Shown: in pieces, positions 3,720 to 64,000 of the stretch
How the letters are laid out: each line of letters opens with the position of its first letter
Numbering within the stretch: position 1 is the first letter of the stretch
NCBI GenBank assembly: GCA_038380435.1
Contig: JAWZYU010000005.1
Coordinates: 34,184,001 to 34,248,000 of the forward strand
Source: Ryuthela nishihirai
Taxonomy: Eukaryota; Arthropoda; Arachnida; Araneae; Heptathelidae
DNA length: 64,000 nt
Direction of reading: 5' to 3'
The notes under the pieces: model-generated
Told to the model about the DNA's origin: nothing
Database searches by the model: none
Seen by the model: the letters and a program-made list of their open reading frames with translations, nothing else
Program-made: the position numbers and the translations under genes

Positions 3720-5235
3720 ATTGAAATACGTTTCACTTTTATTTAATTATGCTGTTTACTTTCAGTTTCTTGTATATTTAATCATAATTTTAATTAAAAA
3801 CAAGTCTTTTCATTAATATTATAAAAGCACTATATCAAAAGACACTATATCAGTCAACATTTTCCCTTTTGGTTCCTTTTTGAAATAAATAGATTCATGT
3901 GAAAATTTAATGGTTTACATATATTGCCTACTCAGAGCAATGGACGTGGGGGCGAGAGGAGGATAAGTTTATAGTGTTTAATGCAATAAGAAAAGATCTG
4001 ACCCACGACAACCTCAAAAAACATTATCTGGATTTCAGACCCGAGCAACGGCTTGTAAATCTGTTACTGCTCTATAAGATTATTTGTAAATCTGTTACTG
4101 TTCTATAAGGTTATTTGTAAATCTGTTACTGTTCTATAAGATTATATCCATGGTTTTGCACAATCTTGACAAATTCAGTAATTTATAACTCAGGAACCTC
4201 TGATTTTCCAAAGGCAAAATTTTTCTAGATTTCTTTGATTAATATATATGCTTCAGCACGCTTAAAAATATTTAAGGCGACGCGTTTTGAGATATTCAAG
4301 GTCAAAAATTTTGGACAATAACCTTGAAACTATTTATTGTAAGAACATTTATTTGAAATATATCAATTTAAAGGGTCAGAAAAGAGCTTTAAGATGAAAC
4401 CGATTTTAACATCCTAATTAGGTACAGATATATTAATTTTTAAATAAAGTTTAGTTTAAACAAATTTGACACTTTTTAATTTTTTGAGTCTCTATTTCTC
4501 AACATTCACTTATAATGAAGTTTGGTATGTGCGAGTTTTTCTATAAATACAAAAAAAAATACAATTTTTTTTAAATCAAAAATAGTCAGGTTCAAAATCG
4601 TCTCTTTTTGTGTTGATTTGACATGGAATCAGTCTTGTGAAAGCACACGTCAGGATATGTCTTGTTTTTTCTCTTCACTCCTCGTGCAGAAATAATATTT
4701 TTTTTTATTAAAGTAATAATATCCACTGAAACGATATGGAAAAACAAAGGAATTAACTCATTCAGTGTTTTGAATGGTGCAAAAATTATAATAAAATAAT
4801 GATTTTTCTTTGTGAGAATATAGCATGTATTTATCTATTGTGACTTTGCAGTAGATTGGAAACAATTATTATTACATTTGAAGAAACTCTAAAAATGAGC
4901 TGACGATTTTGAAGCCTCACAAATGACTCTTGTCATACGAAAATAAAAGATATTTATAGCACTTAAAGTCTTGATTTCGATAATGGCTTTTTCCAGAAAA
5001 CTCCAATTCTCTACTTGTAAAAAACTCATTATTTCTAGCAAATATATTTTAATATGTCTGCTACAAGTTGATCAACAATCGTTATCTTTTTTTGTTTTTT
5101 TCATTTAACGCATAAGATCAATTTTTATATTTTAATATAATCTCTGATAGTTAAAAATCAAGTTTTCCCAGATATTACTATTTATTTCCTGCCAAGGTAC
5201 CCGTGTTCAAAATCCAGATAAAATATATGGACGTT
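3720..5235. other. AT-rich intergenic sequence with one short tandem repeat
   Basis: Apart from the 31-bp tandem repeat listed separately, I see no coding region, RNA gene or shared repeat. Confidence 0.45.
4053..4145. repeat. 31-bp tandem repeat, three copies
   Basis: TTGTAAATCTGTTACTG starts at 4053, 4084 and 4115 and each unit ends CTATAAG(A/G)TTA. The units are nearly identical, so the expansion is recent. Confidence 0.9.
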
Positions 5236-5239
5236 TCTG

Positions 5240-5360
5240 TGTTGTCTTTCTGCTGAGGTCTCGTCTTCCTCAGGAGATCTTTTTTATGTCGCATTAAACT
5301 GACAAGCTTCTATCAGACCTATGAAGCAAGCAGCTGCATGAGAGATAATTTGTTTTATTT
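5240..5360 (+). mobile_element. SINE-B, degraded, lacking most of the tRNA head
   Basis: It matches the SINE-B body: GTGTTGTCTTTCTGCTGAGGTCTCG, then ACTGACAAGCTTCTATCAGACC and AAGCAAGCAGCTGCATGAG. It is diverged, so it is an old copy. Confidence 0.7.
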
Positions 5361-5391
5361 AACGATACTAGTTCAAAGCAAGAACGTACCC

Positions 5392-9290: not shown

Positions 9291-9320
9291 AATTATTTTT
9301 AACCTTTAGTTACAATGGAT

Positions 9321-9524
9321 AAAAAAAAAATACCTACTCAAGCAGCTGCTTGCCACAGAGGTCTGACAGGTGCCTTCAGTTTATATGCCATAGTAGAAGG
9401 TCTGAGAGGATGGCAGGACCTCAGCAGAAAAACAAAACAAACATCCATGCCTTACCCGGGACTCGAACCCAGGTCCCTTAGATCAGTAGCCAAGCATGCT
9501 AACCACGCGGCCACGGGACGGCAA
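9321..9524 (-). mobile_element. SINE-B copy (3' module of the chimera)
   Basis: It reads as a full-length SINE-B: a head CCCGTGGCCGCGTGGTTAGC, a B box GGTTCGAGTCC, a body TTTTTCTGCTGAGGTCCTGCC.., and a 3' end CAAGCAGCTGCTTGAGTAGG with a T-rich tail. Confidence 0.92.
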
Positions 9525-17860: not shown

Positions 17861-18056
17861 ACCCGTGGCCGAGTGGTTAGCACGCTTGGCTATTGATATA
17901 AGGGACCTGGGTTCGAGCCCTGGGTAAGGCATGGCTGTTTGAGTCGTTTTTCTGCTGAGGTCCTGCCATCCTCTCAGACCTTTTACTCTGGCATATAAAC
18001 TGACAGGCTCCTGTCAGACCTCTGTGGCAAGCAGCTGCTTGAGGGGGTATTTATTT
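17861..18056 (+). mobile_element. SINE-B copy, full length
   Basis: A good reference copy: CACCCGTGGCCGAGTGGTTAG head, B box GGTTCGAGCCCT, body with TTTTTCTGCTGAGGTCC and GACAGGCTCCTGTCAGACC, then CAAGCAGCTGCTTGAGGGGG and a TATTTATTTATT tail. Confidence 0.95.
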
Positions 18057-18389
18057 ATTTATTATTTTTACCTAAATCATTATAGCTATCAGCAAAATCT
18101 ACAGAATGCAAAACTTTATTACCCAAAATTTTACTAATGCTTTATTACGCTTATATTTACCCTACCTCTGCTATATGGCAACATTGTATGATCTAGCACA
18201 TAAAATCAAAATTTAAATTCTTTTCTGCTATTACAAAACAGATACGTTCGCTTAATTTTAAATTTGCAGTATAGAGCAACAGTAACTTCATTCTCCAGGG
18301 AATTATAAATTTTAAATATTTTTCAGATATGAGATCTTAATATTTATAAGTTTGTGTTTTTCTGGGAACGAAAATTATTACTATCAATA

Positions 18390-22042: not shown

Positions 22043-23040
22043 ATGTTTGGAAATATTTCTTTATTATGACTATAGCGTTACTAAATATTAGACAAAAAAA
22101 TTACTTAAATCTAATCTTAGATGTTCTACGGATATTACCTTGAGATTGTGGGGTGATTTCTATTAATGAAATTTTGCCATATTTAATTCCAGTTTTCTGC
22201 GTAACTGTTCTGGTCTTAACCGGACTTTTCAAATTCTACAGTGTATAATGGAGATAAGTTCGGGCTTTGTTGGAATGAGTTACATACTACAAAATAGTCA
22301 TTATGAAAGAAATTTTCAGTTTTTTTTACCGTCTATTGCAACAAGCATCTATTTCTCCACGAACTCTTAAATGATTTCGCAACTTTCCAACATAATGTCT
22401 TTCCGTGTCATTACGAAACCGCGAAGACTTCGCGCCATATTGCCTATTAAAAACGTATCTCCGCAAAATTCCCCCGCCCTGCCCACGGTCAGTAGGGGAC
22501 ACAAATGGGCTTGGAAAGGCCACCGTCCGGTGGATGGTACGTTAAGCACTGGCCCCGTGTAGTGGGAGAGCCATACCCTGTACACGTTAAAGAACACGCT
22601 TGATGGCCTTGCGGGAGGCTATTGCAACAAGCATCTATTTCTCCACGAACTCTTAAATGATTTCGCAACTTTCCAACATAATGTCTTTCCGTGTCATTAC
22701 GAAACCGCGAAGACTTCGCGCCATATTGCCTATTAAAAACGTATCTCCGCAAAATTCCCCCGCCCTGCCCACGGTCAGTAGGGGACACAAATGGGCTTGG
22801 AAAGGCCACCGTCCGGTGGATGGTACGTTAAGCACTGGCCCCGTGTAGTGGGAGAGCCATACCCTGTACACGTTAAAGAACACGCTTGATGGCCTTGCGG
22901 GAGGCTACCATCTGTCTCCCAACAGCTGTTCCTGTGGGTCCCCTCTCCCAACCTTCTCTGAGCCTTCGGGGTTCATGTGACCTGGCCATTTAGCCCATGG
23001 TGTGCAAAAAAATTGCTGCTCAGAGATAAAAAAAACCCAA
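22043..23040 (+). repeat. Duplicated block ending in a 5'-truncated SINE-A, with a 286-bp tandem duplication
   Basis: The sequence from ATGTTTGGAAATATTTC (22043) matches the block from 26195 at high identity, through the SINE-A portion. Both SINE parts share private variants (CACCGTCCGGTGGATGGTACG, TTAAGCACTGG). Within this copy 22335-22620 is repeated exactly at 22621-22906. The SINE part begins ACGTATCTCCGCAAAATTCCC with no tRNA head and ends near 23040. Confidence 0.92.
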
Positions 23041-25112: not shown

Positions 25113-25114
25113 GT

Positions 25115-25322
25115 ACAGTCGCTCAAAAAAATATCCGAACACTATGGTTGATTACAGAATTCAGAAAAAATATCTGGCAACGCTTTTTTAAATTAGTGAT
25201 CTGGTAACCTTCGTGTCACGTGACAATTGCCAGATCACTTATTTCTAAAAATAATCGTTGCCAGATATTTTTTCTAAATTCTGTAATCAATCATAGTGTT
25301 CGGATATTTTTTTGAGCGACTG
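25115..25322. mobile_element. Palindromic Tc1/mariner-type MITE (CAGTCGCTCAAAAAA family)
   Basis: TACAGTCGCTCAAAAAAATA..GAACACTATGGTTGATTACAG starts the left arm and the right arm is its near-complete reverse complement ending TTGAGCGACTGTA. The centre holds CTTCGTGTCACGTGACAATTG. The whole 208 bp can fold into one hairpin. Related pieces occur at 31945, 32245, 39145 and 60745. Confidence 0.93.
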
Positions 25323-25617
25323 TATCTCAACTCGGTGTAAAAGAGTCATTGAATAAGTTTACGATTTGCAGTTGTGTATTAGAATTCTGTTGGTCGAAAA
25401 ATACTTTTTTTAATGAGTTGTAATTGCAAATTGACAAAGAGGAAAATTGGGAGAATTCCCAATGTGTCGCAACCGAACCAGATCTTCATCCAGGCGCTTT
25501 TTTTTAAACAACCCAAGCATTCAATTCAGTGACTCATTTTTACAAGAAAAGTAAATAATTGAATTTTTTAATACACCCAGTCGACCAAGACGGGTTCTTC
25601 AAATAATTCGTGTAAGG

Positions 25618-28409: not shown

Positions 28410-28617
28410 CTAAATGGCTTTATAAATAAATACTCCCTCAATCAAGCAGCTGCTTGCCACAGAGGTCTGACAGTTTATATGCCACAGTAGAAGGTCTGAG
28501 AGGATGGCAGGACCTCAGCAGAAAAACGACACATAACTGGGGCTCGAACCCAGGTCCCTTAGATCAGTAGCCAATCGCGCTAACCACTCGGCCATGGGAC
28601 GGCTCTAAATGGTTTTA
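28410..28617 (-). mobile_element. SINE-B with 13-bp TSD
   Basis: The element (28423-28604) is read in reverse: GTCCCATGGCCGAGTGGTTAG head to CAAGCAGCTGCTTGATTGAGG. The TSD is CTAAATGGCTTTA (28410-28422) / CTAAATGGTTTTA (28605-28617). Confidence 0.95.
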
Positions 28618-34431: not shown

Positions 34432-36121
34432 CTACCTCCGACGTCGCTTTGCCCTTCGCTTGTACGGCTGCTCAGGATCATTTCTGGCGAGCGTCCAACA
34501 GGAGTCAGCCAACATTGAAGTGGACCAGTTTCCCTGGTATCGTTTCTCCATCGTTACAATCTCCTGGTGAAAACGTTCACCGTGCTCATCACTAACCATG
34601 CCGCAGTTGTCGGGGAAGAAATCTAAGTGGGAATGGAGAAAGTGGATCTTTAAGGACATATTGCAGCCAAGTTTGTGATACATAGACAACATGTCCTGAA
34701 CCAATTTCTTGTAGTTGTCTGCCCTGACATTCCCGAGGAATTTAGTTGACACCAGATGAAACACGTCGCAAACCTTTTTCTCATCATCTTGAAGCAGGTT
34801 GTCGAACATCTGGTCTCTGAACAGCTCGCAGATCTGAGGACCCACAAAAATTCCCTCTTTAATTTTCATTTCGCTGAGTCGAGGGAATTTGTCAGCCAAG
34901 TACTTGAAAGCTGATGCAGTTCGGTCCATGGTTTTTACAAAGTTTTTCATCATACCGAGTTTGATGTGTAGGGACTGTAGCAGGATTTTGTGCATTTCTG
35001 ACAGTGCTAGGTGTTCCACATTCTTATCTGTGACCTTCAGAGATTCCCTCTGAGGCCAGTTTCTCTTCATGCAGTGCAAAGTCTTTGTTCGGTTGTCCCA
35101 TTCACATAAGAAATAGCAGTACTTCATTTATCCCAGCTACAGATCCATCAACAGAGCCACTATCTTCAAGTCACAACAGAGATGCCAGCCATATTTGCTG
35201 TATTGAAAACAGTTCAACAGCTGTTTTAGGTTATCATAGGTTTCTCTCATGTAGACAGCGTGTCCGATCGGAATGGATGGAAATCAATTTCCATTATACA
35301 GCAACACTGCCTTGAGATTCAATTTCGAGAAGTCTATGAATAGTCGCCATTCTTGAGGGTCAGATTTGATTCCGAGGGCATTCATCAGGCCATCTATATT
35401 GGAGCAGAACACAAGATCATCTTCCTTTCTGAAGTAAGGTGCAAACTGCTCATGATGAGTTCAAAACGAAGTCAGTCGGATATTTTCCTTGAGAAGATTC
35501 CATTAAGTCTTGATCCAAGTATCTCTGCTTTGGCCTTGGATAGCTCCAGATGGCGAACAAGAATGTTCATTTTCTTCTTCGGTGAAAATGTGTGGCGCAG
35601 ATGACGCACCGTGGCAAACATAGGGATCATCATTCGACACCAAAGAGTGTGGAGAACCCGTCGTCGGTTTGCTTCCCTCCTCATCATCTGAATCGATGGA
35701 AAATTCTTTTGGAGGTTTGGCAATGGGAAGGCCTTCACCATGCTGAACTGGTCGGGGAGCAGATTATATATTTTCGTACGCTATTGTCCACTTCTTTTCC
35801 CTTGTGATGCCTCTAGAGACAAGTAGAACCATGCAGAAGTAGCAGTCATTTATGTGATTGCTTGGCTCTCTTCGAACCATAGGAACAGCAAATGGCATCA
35901 CCACTTTTTTGCCTTTCAGCCACTTTGGAATATTTCTTGTACACGTACTGCATCATATGTGTGGGGGCCAGGCCTTATCCTGGTCCCCGATCTTGCATCC
36001 AAAATAAAACTCATACGCCGCTTTCACTATTGCAATGATGGCCGTTTTCTGGCTTGTAAACGTCATTTCCCCAGCAAATGTAATAAAATGAACCTGCACT
36101 ATTAACACAGTTACAAGGCAT
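34432..36121 (-). pseudogene. Multi-copy arthropod gene family of unknown function, copy 2, near full length
   Basis: The start Met at 36121 opens 'MPCNCVNSAGSFYYICWGND', the expected N-terminus. Then come 'GLAPTHMMQ', 'KPPKEFSIDSDDEE' (about 35720), 'MNILVRHLELSKAKAEILGS' (about 35560) and 'DGLMNALGI' (about 35380). The last 231 codons (35127-34432) are uninterrupted, with 'LPQSLHIKLG'-type and 'FPRLSEMKIKEGIFVGPQI' segments, 'HFLHSHLDFFPDNCGMVSDE', 'HGERFHQEI' and a basic C-terminus. Total span matches a protein of about 560 residues, but frameshifts and stops break the first two thirds. The early C..C pairs suggest a zinc-binding domain. The function is not known to me; its spread within and between genomes suggests mobile-element origin (inference). 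Confidence 0.82.
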
Positions 36122-43273: not shown

Positions 43274-43469
43274 TACTCAATTCTTTAAAAAAATAAATAC
43301 TCCCTCAAGCAGCTGCTTGCCACAGAGGTCTGACAGTTTATATGCCACAGTAGAAGATCTGTGAGGATGGCAGGCACTCAGCAGAAAAACGACACATACA
43401 TCCATGCCTTACCCGGGGCTCGAACCCAGGTCCCGTAGATCAGTAGTCATGGGACGGCTACTGAATTCT
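43274..43469 (-). mobile_element. SINE-B, head partly deleted, with TSD
   Basis: The element is about 43285-43458. AGTAGTCATGGGACGG shows the loss of most of the A-box arm. TSD ACTCAATTCTT / ACTGAATTCTT. Confidence 0.9.
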
Positions 43470-48399: not shown

Positions 48400-48645
48400 C
48401 TCTACACGCTTGGATGTTTGATAGAGATCAGCTGCAGTTTTATGGAGCTAAGTGATGACTGCTACTTGGTTTTAGAATAGACATTTTAAATTTCTTGCCA
48501 CCACATGATATAAACAGGAAATCAGATAAATGGCCGCCTGGTGAGCTTTCTTGAGAGGGTAGTGGTTAGATTTCAAGATCTTTAGAGTATTGTTGAACTT
48601 AAAAACGTGAAAATATTATGGAATCTGCCTTAAAAGTTAAAATTA

Positions 48646-49201
48646 TCCCTCCAACAGCTGCTTGCCATAGAGGGTTGACAGGAGTCTGGCTGTTTAATGC
48701 ACCACAGAGAAGAGGGGCGGGGGTGGCTCAGTCGATAGCGCGCCAGGCTCGTAATCTGTAGTTCCCAGGTTCGAGTCCCAGCTGGGTCAGCGTTGAGATT
48801 TATCTCCGCAAAACTCCCCGCCCTGTCTACGGTCAGTAGGGGACACCGATGGGCTTGGAAAGGCCGCCGTCCGTCGGATGGGACGTTAAGCCGTGGCCCC
48901 GTGTGCGGGAGAGCCATACCCTGTGCACGTTAAAGAACACGCTGGATGGCCTTGACGGGAGGCTACCATCTGTCTCCCAACAGCTGTTCCAGTGGGTCCC
49001 CTCCCCCAACCTTCTCTGAGCCTTCGGGGTCCTTGTGGCCTGGCCATTTAGCCCATTGTGTGCAAAAAAGTGCCGCTCAGAAGTAAAACAACCCAACCCA
49101 CAGAGAAGATCTGTGAGGAAAGAGAGACAGTGCTTTTACGCGAGGCTCGAACCCAGGTCCCTTCCATCAAAAGCCAAGCGCTTAAATACTCACCGACCGG
49201 C
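48646..49201 (-). mobile_element. SINE-B split by a SINE-A
   Basis: The 3' part is at 48646-48713 (CCAACAGCTGCTTGCC..) and the head part at 49098-49201 (GAGGCTCGAACCCAGG..). The sequence is contiguous once the inserted SINE-A and its target duplication are discounted. Confidence 0.92.
48702..49109 (+). mobile_element. SINE-A nested in SINE-B, exact TSD
   Basis: The element (48714-49097) is near consensus and full length. Exact TSD CCACAGAGAAGA (12 bp). One of the best preserved copies, so among the youngest. Confidence 0.97.
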
Positions 49202-55196: not shown

Positions 55197-55860
55197 TCAA
55201 GTTATTATCAATTTATTTCGGTGATGATGTGTGAAAGCCATTTTTGGGCATTTTTGAGGCATACTTAAGTCAGTTACTGCGACAGCCCGACATTTACGAA
55301 AAACTGTTCTAGATCACTCAGAGTTAAAACAACAAAACCAATGATCACTAATAGGGTAAAACACCCAAATAATGATCACCAAGAGGGTAAAACAACCCAA
55401 ATAATGATCACACAGAAGCAAAACAATCCAATCAATTATTACACAGAGGTAAACAAACCCAACCAATGATCACACGGAGGTAAAACAACCCAACTAATGA
55501 TCACTCAGAGGTAAAACAACCCAATCAATGATCACACAGAGGTAAAACAACGCAGCTAATGATCGCTTGGTGGTAAAACAACCCAAGTTATCGTTCAGAG
55601 GAAAATAATCCAACCAGTGATCACTCGGAAGTAAAACAATTTAGCCAATGATCACTGAGGTAAAACAACCCAACCAACGATCACTCAGAGGTACAACAAT
55701 CCAGCCAATGATCACCCAACTCAGAGAAAAACAACTCCAATGATTGGTTGAGTGATTTAGAACAGTGTTGAGAAAACGGCGTGCCGTGGCAGTAACTTAG
55801 GTGTTTTGCGAAAGGTCCAAAAATGACTTTCATACACAAAAATGAAATAACATTAACTTG
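55197..55860. mobile_element. Fold-back element of about 110-bp arms enclosing a minisatellite
   Basis: Left arm CAAGTTATTATCAATTTATTT.., GTGAAAGCCATTTTTGG.., ACTGTTCTAGATCACTC (55197-55316) is mirrored by GAGTGATTTAGAACAGTG.., CCAAAAATGACTTTCATAC.., CATTAACTTG (55751-55862). The arms are diverged from each other. Confidence 0.7.
55310..55747. repeat. About 32-bp minisatellite built from the SINE-A 3' tail
   Basis: About 13 units of AATGATCACTCAGAGGTAAA followed by ACAACCCAACC. The part CTCAGAGGTAAAACAACCCAACC is identical to the 3' end of SINE-A; AATGATCA is the added spacer. Units vary (CACACGG, CGCTTGG, CACTGAGG). Confidence 0.93.
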
Positions 55861-58794: not shown

Positions 58795-59028
58795 AAACCA
58801 ACCGAGACGTCCCATGGCCGAGTGGTTATCGCGCTTGGCTACTGATCTAAGGGACCTGGGTTCGAGCCCCGGGTTAAGACATGGCTGTCTGTGTTGTTTT
58901 TCTACTGAGGGCCTGCCATACTCTCAGACCCTCTACTATGGCATAAAAACTGGTGGGCTCCTGTCAGACCTCTGTGGCAAGCAGCTGCTTGAGGAGGGGG
59001 GGGGGGTATTTTTTTTAAAACCAACCGA
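58795..59028 (+). mobile_element. SINE-B with 11-bp TSD
   Basis: The element (58806-59017) has head GACGTCCCATGGCCGAGTGG and tail CTTGAGGAGGGGGGGGGGGT. TSD AAACCAACCGA exact on both sides. Confidence 0.95.
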
Positions 59029-60416: not shown

Positions 60417-60715
60417 TTAAGTTATTGTGCCAACAGCAGTACCAAGCTGAAAACACCGGTTCTTGTCTGATCACCGCACGGCAGTACTAAGTTGAAAACA
60501 CCGGTTATCTTCCGATCACCGCAGTTAAGCAGCTTTGTGCGCGGTCTAGTACTTGGGAGGGTGAACACCGCGTGCAGTTGGCAACAAAAACTGCTGAGGA
60601 CCCGCCATCGTCACAGATTCCCCTACTATGGCGTGTTAAACTGACAGGCTCCTGTCAGACCTCTGTGGCAAGCATCTGCTTGAGGAGGTATTTATTTATA
60701 TTTTTAAGTTACTGT
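60417..60715 (+). mobile_element. Chimeric SINE: 5S rRNA head on SINE-B body, single TSD
   Basis: TTAAGTTATTGT (60417-60428) and TTAAGTTACTGT (60704-60715) enclose one element. It starts exactly at GCCAAC, the canonical 5' end of 5S rRNA, continues through 5S-like sequence to TTGGC (60583), then passes via AACAAAAA into the SINE-B body at CTGCTGAGGAC (60591) and the usual CAAGCATCTGCTTGAGGAGG end with TATTTATTT tail. The tRNA-like head of SINE-B is absent. The shared TSD shows that the fusion moved as one RNA. Confidence 0.85.
60429..60584 (+). rRNA. 5S rRNA-derived sequence, internally duplicated
   Basis: GCCAACAGCAGTACCAAGCT, GAAAACACCGGTTCT, CTGATCACCG, GTTAAGCAGC, TCTAGTACTTGGGAGGGTGA and GTGCAGTTGGC follow animal 5S order, including the internal control region. 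The segment 60437-60478 is repeated, with differences, at 60482-60523 (offset 45). About ten bases are missing after GGGTGA. As a retroposed, rearranged copy it is unlikely to supply ribosomes. Confidence 0.88.
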
Positions 60716-60744
60716 GACGAGGAAGTGGGCAATGTGGGAGACAT

Positions 60745-60871
60745 GGGCAACCTTCGTGTCACGTGACACGAAGGTTGCCAGATCACTAATTTCTAAAAAA
60801 ATCGTTGCCAGTTATATTTTCTGAATTCTGTAATCAACCATCGTGTTTGGATACTTTTTTAAGCGACTGTA
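60745..60871. mobile_element. Half of a CAGTCGCTCAAAAAA MITE
   Basis: CCTTCGTGTCACGTGACACGAAGG (centre palindrome) and the right arm to TTTTTTAAGCGACTGTAC. Confidence 0.9.
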
Positions 60872-60955
60872 CATCCATGCCTTAACTCGGGGTTCGAACG
60901 CAGGTCTCTTAGATTAGTAGCCAAGCGTGCTTATATCACTCGGCCACATATCATA
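60872..60955 (-). mobile_element. SINE-B head fragment
   Basis: CATCCATGCCTTAACTCGGGG, GAACGCAGGTCTCTTAGA and CACTCGGCCAC are the tRNA-like head in reverse. Confidence 0.88.
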
Positions 60956-63871: not shown

Positions 63872-64000
63872 TGCCATCCCGTGGCCGAGTGGTTAGCGCG
63901 CTTGGCTACTGATCTACGGGATCTGGTACGGGACCTGGGTTAAAGCACGGATGTTCGTGTTGTTTTTCTGCTGAGGTCCTGCCATCCTCTCAGACCTTCT
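63872..64000 (+). mobile_element. SINE-B, runs off the window
   Basis: CATCCCGTGGCCGAGTGGTTAG head with a duplicated (GATCT)ACGGGATCTGGTACGGGACCTGG stretch before a broken B box, then GTTTTTCTGCTGAGGTCC. The 3' end lies beyond 64000. Confidence 0.93.

What the first reader, a model, noticed from the sequence alone, without database searches (positions are those of the whole stretch)
60417..60715. 5S rRNA-headed SINE-B chimera with its own TSD
The SINE-B body normally carries a tRNA-like head. Here a 5S rRNA sequence begins at the exact 5S start right after one TSD copy and runs into the SINE-B body, whose tail abuts the second TSD copy (12 bp, one mismatch). The fusion was therefore reverse transcribed and inserted as one RNA. 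5S-headed SINEs (SINE3) are known in vertebrates; a tRNA SINE and a 5S version sharing one body in the same genome would show head exchange in action.
Basis: partly seen in the sequence, partly recalled or inferred. Interest (0 to 1): 0.86.

Follow-up and report, generated by a model that had tools for sequence, protein, structure and literature searches.

The report
5S-headed twin of a tRNA SINE
A short mobile DNA element in this animal genome carries a 5S ribosomal RNA front end on the same body that a far commoner relative carries behind a tRNA front end; it is a dispersed multi-copy family, a kind already described in moths, and its 5S part has repeatedly grown into tandem arrays.

Summary
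At 60429-60703 a 5S rRNA head runs into the body and tail of the local tRNA-headed SINE ("SINE-B"), and 12-13 bp target-site duplications (one mismatch) flank the whole unit. Two details were missed: the head holds a 45-bp tandem duplication and lacks 10 nt near box C. It is no one-off: in the window's 3.1-Gb genome the 40 best of 2491 first-look candidates were scored and 40 of 40 match through head and body. TSDs are found in 19 of 40 (17 of 20 that start at 5S base 1), against 54 of 1560 mispaired controls. The consensus head is a complete 118-nt 5S. Old tRNA-headed copies carry mixed body states, so the 5S head probably replaced a tRNA head. This is a new member of a known kind: HaSE3/HaSE1 of Helicoverpa is the same arrangement. 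Beyond that precedent, as far as I read it, is head instability: 6 of 40 copies (a biased sample) have tandem 5S heads with six different unit lengths (37-61 bp, up to 22 units), and 14 of 40 have one of six deletions near box C. Host 5S genes, total copy number and the unbiased frequency of tandem heads remain unmeasured; the genome search answered once.

The parts
60417..60428 (+). Left target-site duplication TTAAGTTATTGT (13 bp if G60429 is counted)
60429..60582 (+). 5S rRNA head: 5S position 1 at G60429, end of 5S (GTTGGC) at 60582; about one and a half 5S units
60436..60480 (+). First unit of the 45-bp tandem duplication in the head
   Evidence: TRF; 8 differences in 45 from the second unit
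60481..60525 (+). Second unit of the 45-bp tandem duplication; 5S continues from it to its 3' end
60564..60565 (+). Site of a 10-nt deletion (family positions 89-98 as aligned) near box C of the 5S internal promoter (box positions recalled); the same aligned deletion is in 7 of 40 copies, this one included
60583..60590 (+). Junction AACAAAAA between 5S end and body (family consensus AAAAAAT)
60591..60703 (+). SINE-B body and (TATTT)-type tail; the only run of four or more T found in 60429-60720 begins at 60701, at the end of the tail
   Evidence: nhmmer E 6.3e-30; T-runs
60704..60715 (+). Right target-site duplication TTAAGTTACTGT
17862..18076 (+). tRNA-headed SINE-B copy, 94% to consensus; no TSD found
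9303..9517 (-). tRNA-headed SINE-B copy; no TSD found
58811..59020 (+). tRNA-headed SINE-B copy with 12-bp TSD (one mismatch)
43275..43453 (-). tRNA-headed SINE-B copy, profile match from position 22, 12-bp TSD (one mismatch)
28413..28598 (-). tRNA-headed SINE-B copy with 12-bp TSD (one mismatch)
5171..5373 (+). Old tRNA-headed SINE-B copy (profile match from position 15); 5 of 8 diagnostic body positions 5S-like, 3 tRNA-like
48628..49190 (-). Old tRNA-headed SINE-B copy split by a SINE-A insertion; diagnostic positions 3 5S-like, 2 tRNA-like, 3 neither
63878..64000 (+). tRNA-headed SINE-B copy cut by the window end

Best explanation
The element is one copy of a dispersed family of 5S-headed SINEs (SINE3 type) that shares body and tail with the far commoner tRNA-headed SINE-B of the same genome. 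Shown: the unit 5S head + body + tail is flanked by one pair of TSDs, here and at other copies; at least 40 dispersed copies exist; the consensus head is a complete 5S. Inferred: (1) a transcript of an older tRNA-headed SINE-B was being reverse transcribed from its 3' tail by a partner LINE enzyme; (2) the enzyme switched template near the start of the body onto the 3' end of a 5S rRNA and copied it to its 5' end; (3) the fused copy kept the type-1 Pol III promoter inside the 5S, was transcribed, and spread through the tail it shares with SINE-B. Later, heads of single copies grew by tandem duplication or lost pieces near box C; the window copy suffered both and is probably silent.
For: Genome search: the 40 best of 2491 first-look candidates were scored; 40 of 40 match across head and body at 81-100% (the 100% is the window itself). 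TSDs, with starts taken from alignment to the consensus: 19 of 40 copies, 15 of 40 at a stricter score, against 54 and 18 of 1560 controls that pair the left flank of one copy with the right flank of another; 17 of the 20 copies that start at 5S base 1 have one. Consensus of 34 single-head copies starts at 5S position 1 and ends with the 5S 3' end; 20 of 20 loci given to Rfam reach the 5S gathering score, 39.6 to 101.6 bits (20 of the 39 fetched copies were given). Substitutions from the consensus are 1-8% in the head and 1-9% in the body (40 copies), so head and body travelled together. 5S and tRNA body consensuses agree in 97 of 107 columns. Of 12 copies examined, three young tRNA-type copies are 8 of 8 tRNA-type, the window's 5S copy is 8 of 8 5S-type, and 7 of the other 8 (more diverged) are mixtures, which puts the common ancestor on the tRNA-headed side. 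Three tRNA-headed copies in the window have 12-bp TSDs with one mismatch, like the 5S copy.
Against: No empty site was compared. In 21 of 40 copies no TSD was found; of the 20 copies that start at 5S base 2 to 19 only 2 have one, which truncated insertion does not explain by itself. The host 5S genes were not seen, so origin from this species' own 5S is not shown. The LINE partner was not identified. The direction tRNA to 5S rests on few old copies; a tRNA head upstream was recognised in some of them and not in others, and one old copy (33k) is 2 5S-like, 0 tRNA-like, 6 neither. The scored copies are the best 40 for a duplicated-head query, not a random sample; the other 2451 candidates were not scored and may include tRNA-headed copies.
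Confidence: 0.92

Rival explanations
1. A one-off fusion: a single template switch made only this copy.
For: Only 1 of 37 SINE-B bodies or body pieces in 264 kb (window plus 20 stretches of 10 kb) has a 5S head, and none in the 200 kb outside the window.
Against: 39 further dispersed copies with 5S head and body, a common junction in the consensus, and TSDs of their own in 18 of the 39.
Confidence: 0.01
2. SINE-B (5' truncated) happened to insert beside a 5S gene or pseudogene, or a 5S pseudogene beside SINE-B.
For: 5' truncated SINE-B copies are common in the window: four of twelve start inside the element (28735, 46286, 7425 and 33840).
Against: TSDs flank the joint unit and no matching repeat flanks the body alone; head and body occur together at 40 dispersed places.
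Confidence: 0.02
3. Reverse direction: the 5S-headed SINE is older and the tRNA-headed SINE-B arose from it by gaining a tRNA head.
For: Body states of the 5S family are also found in old copies.
Against: Old copies with those states have a tRNA head where one could be recognised (5k by profile; 48k, L055 and L065 by box B), and the 40 5S-headed copies differ from their consensus by only 1-9% in substitutions.
Confidence: 0.08

Closest known systems
HaSE3 / HaSE1 of Helicoverpa armigera (PMC3272025; abstract and passages seen)
   Same: A 5S-derived SINE that shares body and 3' tail with a tRNA-derived SINE of the same genome and seems much less abundant; the authors suggest template switching from the tRNA SINE RNA to 5S rRNA.
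   Different: Another genome; the bodies were not aligned here. In the passages I read no tandem 5S head or box C deletion is mentioned.
PxSE4 and PxSE5 of Plutella xylostella and relatives (PMC8010984; passages seen)
   Same: 5S-derived SINE families in an arthropod with thousands of copies.
   Different: Found with HaSE3 as query; 3' region tied to a LINE; body not aligned with this one.
SINE1-1_EBu of hagfish (PMC7245038; passages seen)
   Same: A SINE that got a new head (7SL RNA) by chimera formation with an existing SINE.
   Different: 7SL RNA, not 5S, as the new head.
SINE3 of fish and mammals (Kapitonov and Jurka 2003; recalled, and seen only as cited)
   Same: 5S-derived head with internal Pol III promoter.
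   Different: Other bodies and tails (recalled, not aligned).
PcH-Sat, a limpet satellite with a segment of a Nin-SINE (PMC11121367; passages seen)
   Same: A SINE piece turned into tandem repeats.
   Different: A centromeric or pericentromeric satellite from a Nin-SINE segment without boxes A and B, whereas here arrays arise from the 5S head inside single elements.

Membership tests
SINE (LINE-mobilised short retroposon) | Dispersed copies flanked by TSDs | tested here: met
   40 places; TSD in 19 of 40, 17 of 20 with a complete 5' end, 54 of 1560 in controls
SINE (LINE-mobilised short retroposon) | 3' tail shared with a partner LINE | not tested
   Partner LINE not sought; tail shared with tRNA-headed SINE-B
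SINE3 (5S-headed SINE) | Head derived from 5S rRNA including the internal promoter region | tested here: met
   Rfam gathering score in the window and in 20 of 20 loci given; consensus covers all of 5S
SINE3 (5S-headed SINE) | Transcribed by RNA polymerase III from the head | not testable with these tools
   Whole 5S in the consensus; deletions near box C in 14 of 40 copies (box positions recalled); no expression data
HaSE3-like chimera (5S head on the body of a tRNA SINE of the same genome) | Body and tail shared with a tRNA-headed SINE in one genome | tested here: met
   97 of 107 body columns identical between the two consensuses; tRNA-headed copies in the window
5S-carrying LTR elements (Cassandra, Ajax) | 5S sequence inside paired LTRs, short TSD (5 bp for Ajax) | tested here: not met
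   TSDs of 8-20 bp directly flank single 5S-body units, so no second LTR lies within the unit; Ajax features from PMC10886601 passages

The most novel reading that the evidence does not exclude
The 5S head makes this SINE a seed of minisatellites: once placed on the SINE it repeatedly duplicates in tandem (six unit lengths in six copies, up to 22 units of 37 bp) and loses pieces near box C, while the tRNA-headed twin does not. The same body with two heads would then be a natural comparison of how head type governs array birth, element decay and success of the family.
Probability: 0.35. Interest if true: 0.55.

Novelty: new member of a known kind. Interest (0 to 1): 0.42.

Why it matters
It is an example of SINE head exchange between tRNA and 5S in what may be a chelicerate (weak evidence, one transposon-like protein), with both forms on nearly the same body in one genome. 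That gives a matched pair to compare type-1 (5S) and type-2 (tRNA) internal promoters by copy number, age and decay. The recurrent tandem growth of the 5S head shows how a mobile element can start minisatellites.

Tried and rejected
Rejected: one-off fusion; side-by-side insertion; chance TSD. A first idea, that changes shared by both 5S units of the window copy prove drift before the duplication, was weakened: the change at 5S position 17 is matched by a complementary change at position 61 (pairing read from the Rfam alignment), and apart from position 49 the shared changes at positions 10, 11 and 17 belong to the family consensus. The A to C change at position 49 is in both units but not in the consensus, so that duplication came after it.

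A first TSD count (22 of 40 copies, 11 of 188 controls) used wrong element starts for at least L016, L023, L028 and L042; one of these, L023, was counted as a hit. I repeated it with starts from alignment to the consensus and a fuller control; the numbers in this report are from the repeat.

Led nowhere: a 22-base SINE-B word and a 33-base animal 5S word had no exact match in viral contigs or genome contigs. Pfam on five window ORFs gave one hit, DUF4817. Two paper searches for chelicerate or arthropod 5S SINEs listed 3 papers and 1 paper, none with a title on a chelicerate 5S SINE. I do not claim that nothing is in print, since later searches failed.

Bias: the 40 scored copies are the best matches to a query with a duplicated head and a box C deletion, so 6 of 40 and 14 of 40 overstate the family's frequencies. 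The tRNA control (0 of 29 tRNA-head hits with a second head within 120 bp, 14 of them full length) comes from 264 kb taken without regard to heads and is not a matched comparison.

Full report
Check of the observation. The sequence shows, from left to right: TTAAGTTATTGT (60417-60428), a 5S rRNA sequence whose first base is G60429, the 5S 3' end GTTGGC at 60577-60582, the junction AACAAAAA (60583-60590), the SINE-B body and tail (60591-60703), and TTAAGTTACTGT (60704-60715). Rfam reports 5S at 60474-60582 (46.3 bits). At exact edges 0 of 20,000 random pairs of places in the window matched as well as the two repeats; with 3 bases of slop 37 of 20,000 did. The best repeat around the body alone is 7 of 12 bases. 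So the 5S part and the body came in as one piece.

The head holds a 45-bp tandem duplication (units 60436-60480 and 60481-60525, 8 differences in 45), so it is about one and a half 5S units long. It also lacks 10 nt near box C of the 5S internal promoter (box positions recalled).

SINE-B in the window. Profile and BLAST searches show twelve other copies of the element, besides shorter, weaker matches. Seven begin with or retain a tRNA-like head (17862, 9517-, 58811, 43453-, 28598-, 5171, 63878), another is split by a SINE-A insertion (48628-49190-), and four start inside the element (28735, 46286-, 7425-, 33840-). Of ten of these searched for TSDs, three tRNA-headed copies (58k, 43k, 28k-) have 12-bp repeats with one mismatch, the same kind as the 5S copy; the truncated 7k copy has a shorter one; 17k, 9k, 28k+, 5k, 46k and 33k gave none. 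No other 5S match was found in the window even at E up to 10.

Is it a family? The window lies in an assembly of 3,110,830,574 bases in 1680 contigs. Searching it with 60429-60703 gave 2491 first-look candidates, of which the best 40 were scored; 40 of 40 match through head and body (81-100% identity; the window itself is one), and five further rows are extra partial matches beside them. The other 2451 candidates were not scored and may include tRNA-headed copies. I fetched the other 39 with flanks. With starts taken from alignment to the consensus, TSDs are found in 19 of 40 copies (15 at a stricter score), against 54 (18) of 1560 pairings of one copy's left flank with another's right flank. 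Of the 20 copies that begin at 5S base 1, 17 have a TSD; of the 20 that begin at base 2 to 19, 2 have one. The lack in the second group is unexplained. The consensus of 34 single-head copies begins GCCAACGGCAGTACC, runs through a complete 118-nt 5S to GCAGTTGGC, continues AAAAAAT, then the body. Of the 39 fetched loci I gave 20 to Rfam; 20 of 20 reach the 5S gathering score, 39.6 to 101.6 bits. Substitutions from the consensus are 1-8% in the head and 1-9% in the body.

Abundance. In 264 kb (window plus 20 stretches of 10 kb at fixed positions) there are 37 SINE-B bodies or pieces of them and one 5S head, the window's own. Scaled up, the body would be present some hundreds of thousands of times (inference, fragments included). 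5S-headed copies number at least 40; their total was not measured, but they are clearly the minority.

Which head came first? The body consensuses of the two forms agree in 97 of 107 columns and differ at 8 positions, used as diagnostic. Of 12 copies examined, three young ones (17k, L050, L056) are 8 of 8 tRNA-type and the window's 5S copy is 8 of 8 5S-type. Of the other eight, all more diverged, seven are mixtures (5k and L055 have 5 of 8 5S-like states); 33k has 2 5S-like, none tRNA-like, 6 neither. A tRNA head was recognised in 5k (by profile) and by box B in 48k, L055, L065, L057 and 58k, not in 33k or L059. The simplest reading is an ancestral tRNA-headed element, from which both the young tRNA-headed subfamily and the 5S-headed family descend. 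The numbers are small.

Unstable heads. Six of the 40 copies have tandem 5S heads: the window (45 bp, 2 units), L009 (46 bp, 4), L010 (50 bp, 2), L012 (59-61 bp, 3), L015 (55 bp, 7) and L028, whose longer stretch L048 shows 22 units of 37 bp. The unit lengths differ, so these look like separate events (inference). TSDs around the whole expanded unit were found for the window, L009, L010, L012 and, weakly (10 bp, one mismatch), L015; none was found for L028 even in the longer stretch. Fourteen of 40 copies have one of six deletions between 5S positions 77 and 101; the one in the window is shared by seven copies. One of the others, 16 nt in three copies, lies between two copies of ACCTGGGA in the consensus, as expected for slippage (read from the sequence). 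The sample is biased towards duplicated heads and box C deletions because the query has both. As a loose control, none of 29 tRNA-head hits in 264 kb has a second one within 120 bp. Whether duplications arise in the inserted DNA or during reverse transcription is open; the 37-bp array, with variant units scattered through it, looks like growth in place (inference). In the window copy a change at 5S position 49 lies in both units but not in the family consensus, so the duplication followed it.

Mechanism. Most likely a LINE reverse transcriptase copying SINE-B RNA switched to the 3' end of 5S rRNA at the start of the body and copied it to the end; the product kept a type-1 Pol III promoter and the tail needed for further rounds. 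This is inferred from the complete 5S and the junction in the consensus and from the shared tail. The authors of the Helicoverpa study suggest the same for HaSE3. The window copy, with part of box C gone, is probably not transcribed (inference; box positions recalled).

Comparison with what is known. HaSE3 of Helicoverpa armigera is a 5S-derived SINE that shares body and tail with the tRNA-derived HaSE1 and seems rarer (PMC3272025, abstract and passages). PxSE4 and PxSE5 are further moth 5S SINEs (PMC8010984, passages). A hagfish SINE gained a 7SL head (PMC7245038, passages). LTR elements with 5S sequence (Ajax, Cassandra; PMC10886601, passages) do not fit. So this is a new member of a known kind, in another genome. 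The host looks like a chelicerate only because, among the ten named relatives in the best 120 (of 1334) hits of one transposon-like ORF (34432-35127-), five are from a pseudoscorpion and three from a spider; the other two are from a tunicate and a fruit fly. That is weak evidence.

Limits. The genome search answered once, so the host 5S genes, the full copy count and the unbiased frequency of tandem heads are missing. No empty site was compared.

Noticed in passing
window 55312-55715; L048:1-939: Other arrays that seem to come from SINE-A: 31 bp x 13 resembling its 3' end in the window, and 169 bp x 5.6 in L048 (resemblance read by eye). SINEs may often start tandem arrays in this genome.
   Followed up: no
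L048:1532-1629: A second, inverted array of the same 37-bp 5S-head unit (2.6 copies) about 55 bp before the 22-unit array.
   Followed up: no
tRNA-headed SINE-B copies, e.g. 17947-17951: 5 of 6 tRNA-headed copies examined have TTTTT at the head-body joint, a possible Pol III terminator, where the 5S family has AAAAAAT.
   Followed up: partly
5S-headed copies that start at 5S base 2-19, e.g. L011, L013, L016, L030, L046 (bases 9-10): Half of the 40 copies start a few bases inside the 5S, several at bases 9-10, and 18 of these 20 have no recognisable TSD, unlike copies with a complete 5' end.
   Followed up: partly
window 48714-49100: SINE-A inserted in a SINE-B copy, with TCTTCTCTGTGG on both sides (read).
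   Followed up: partly
window 60746-60779 and 25114-25324: Palindrome next to the element (GGCAACCTTCGTGTCACGTGACACGAAGGTTGCC) and a related self-inverted element at 25 kb; looks like a MITE.
   Followed up: no
window 60869-60947: A piece matching the tRNA head of SINE-B on the minus strand, about 150 bp after the element's right TSD, running into other sequence.
   Followed up: no
window 22333-22907: Perfect 286-bp tandem duplication, very recent or an assembly artefact.
   Followed up: no
window 34432-35127: ORF on the minus strand with 1334 relatives, nearest named ones from Cordylochernes and Araneus; no Pfam match.
   Followed up: partly
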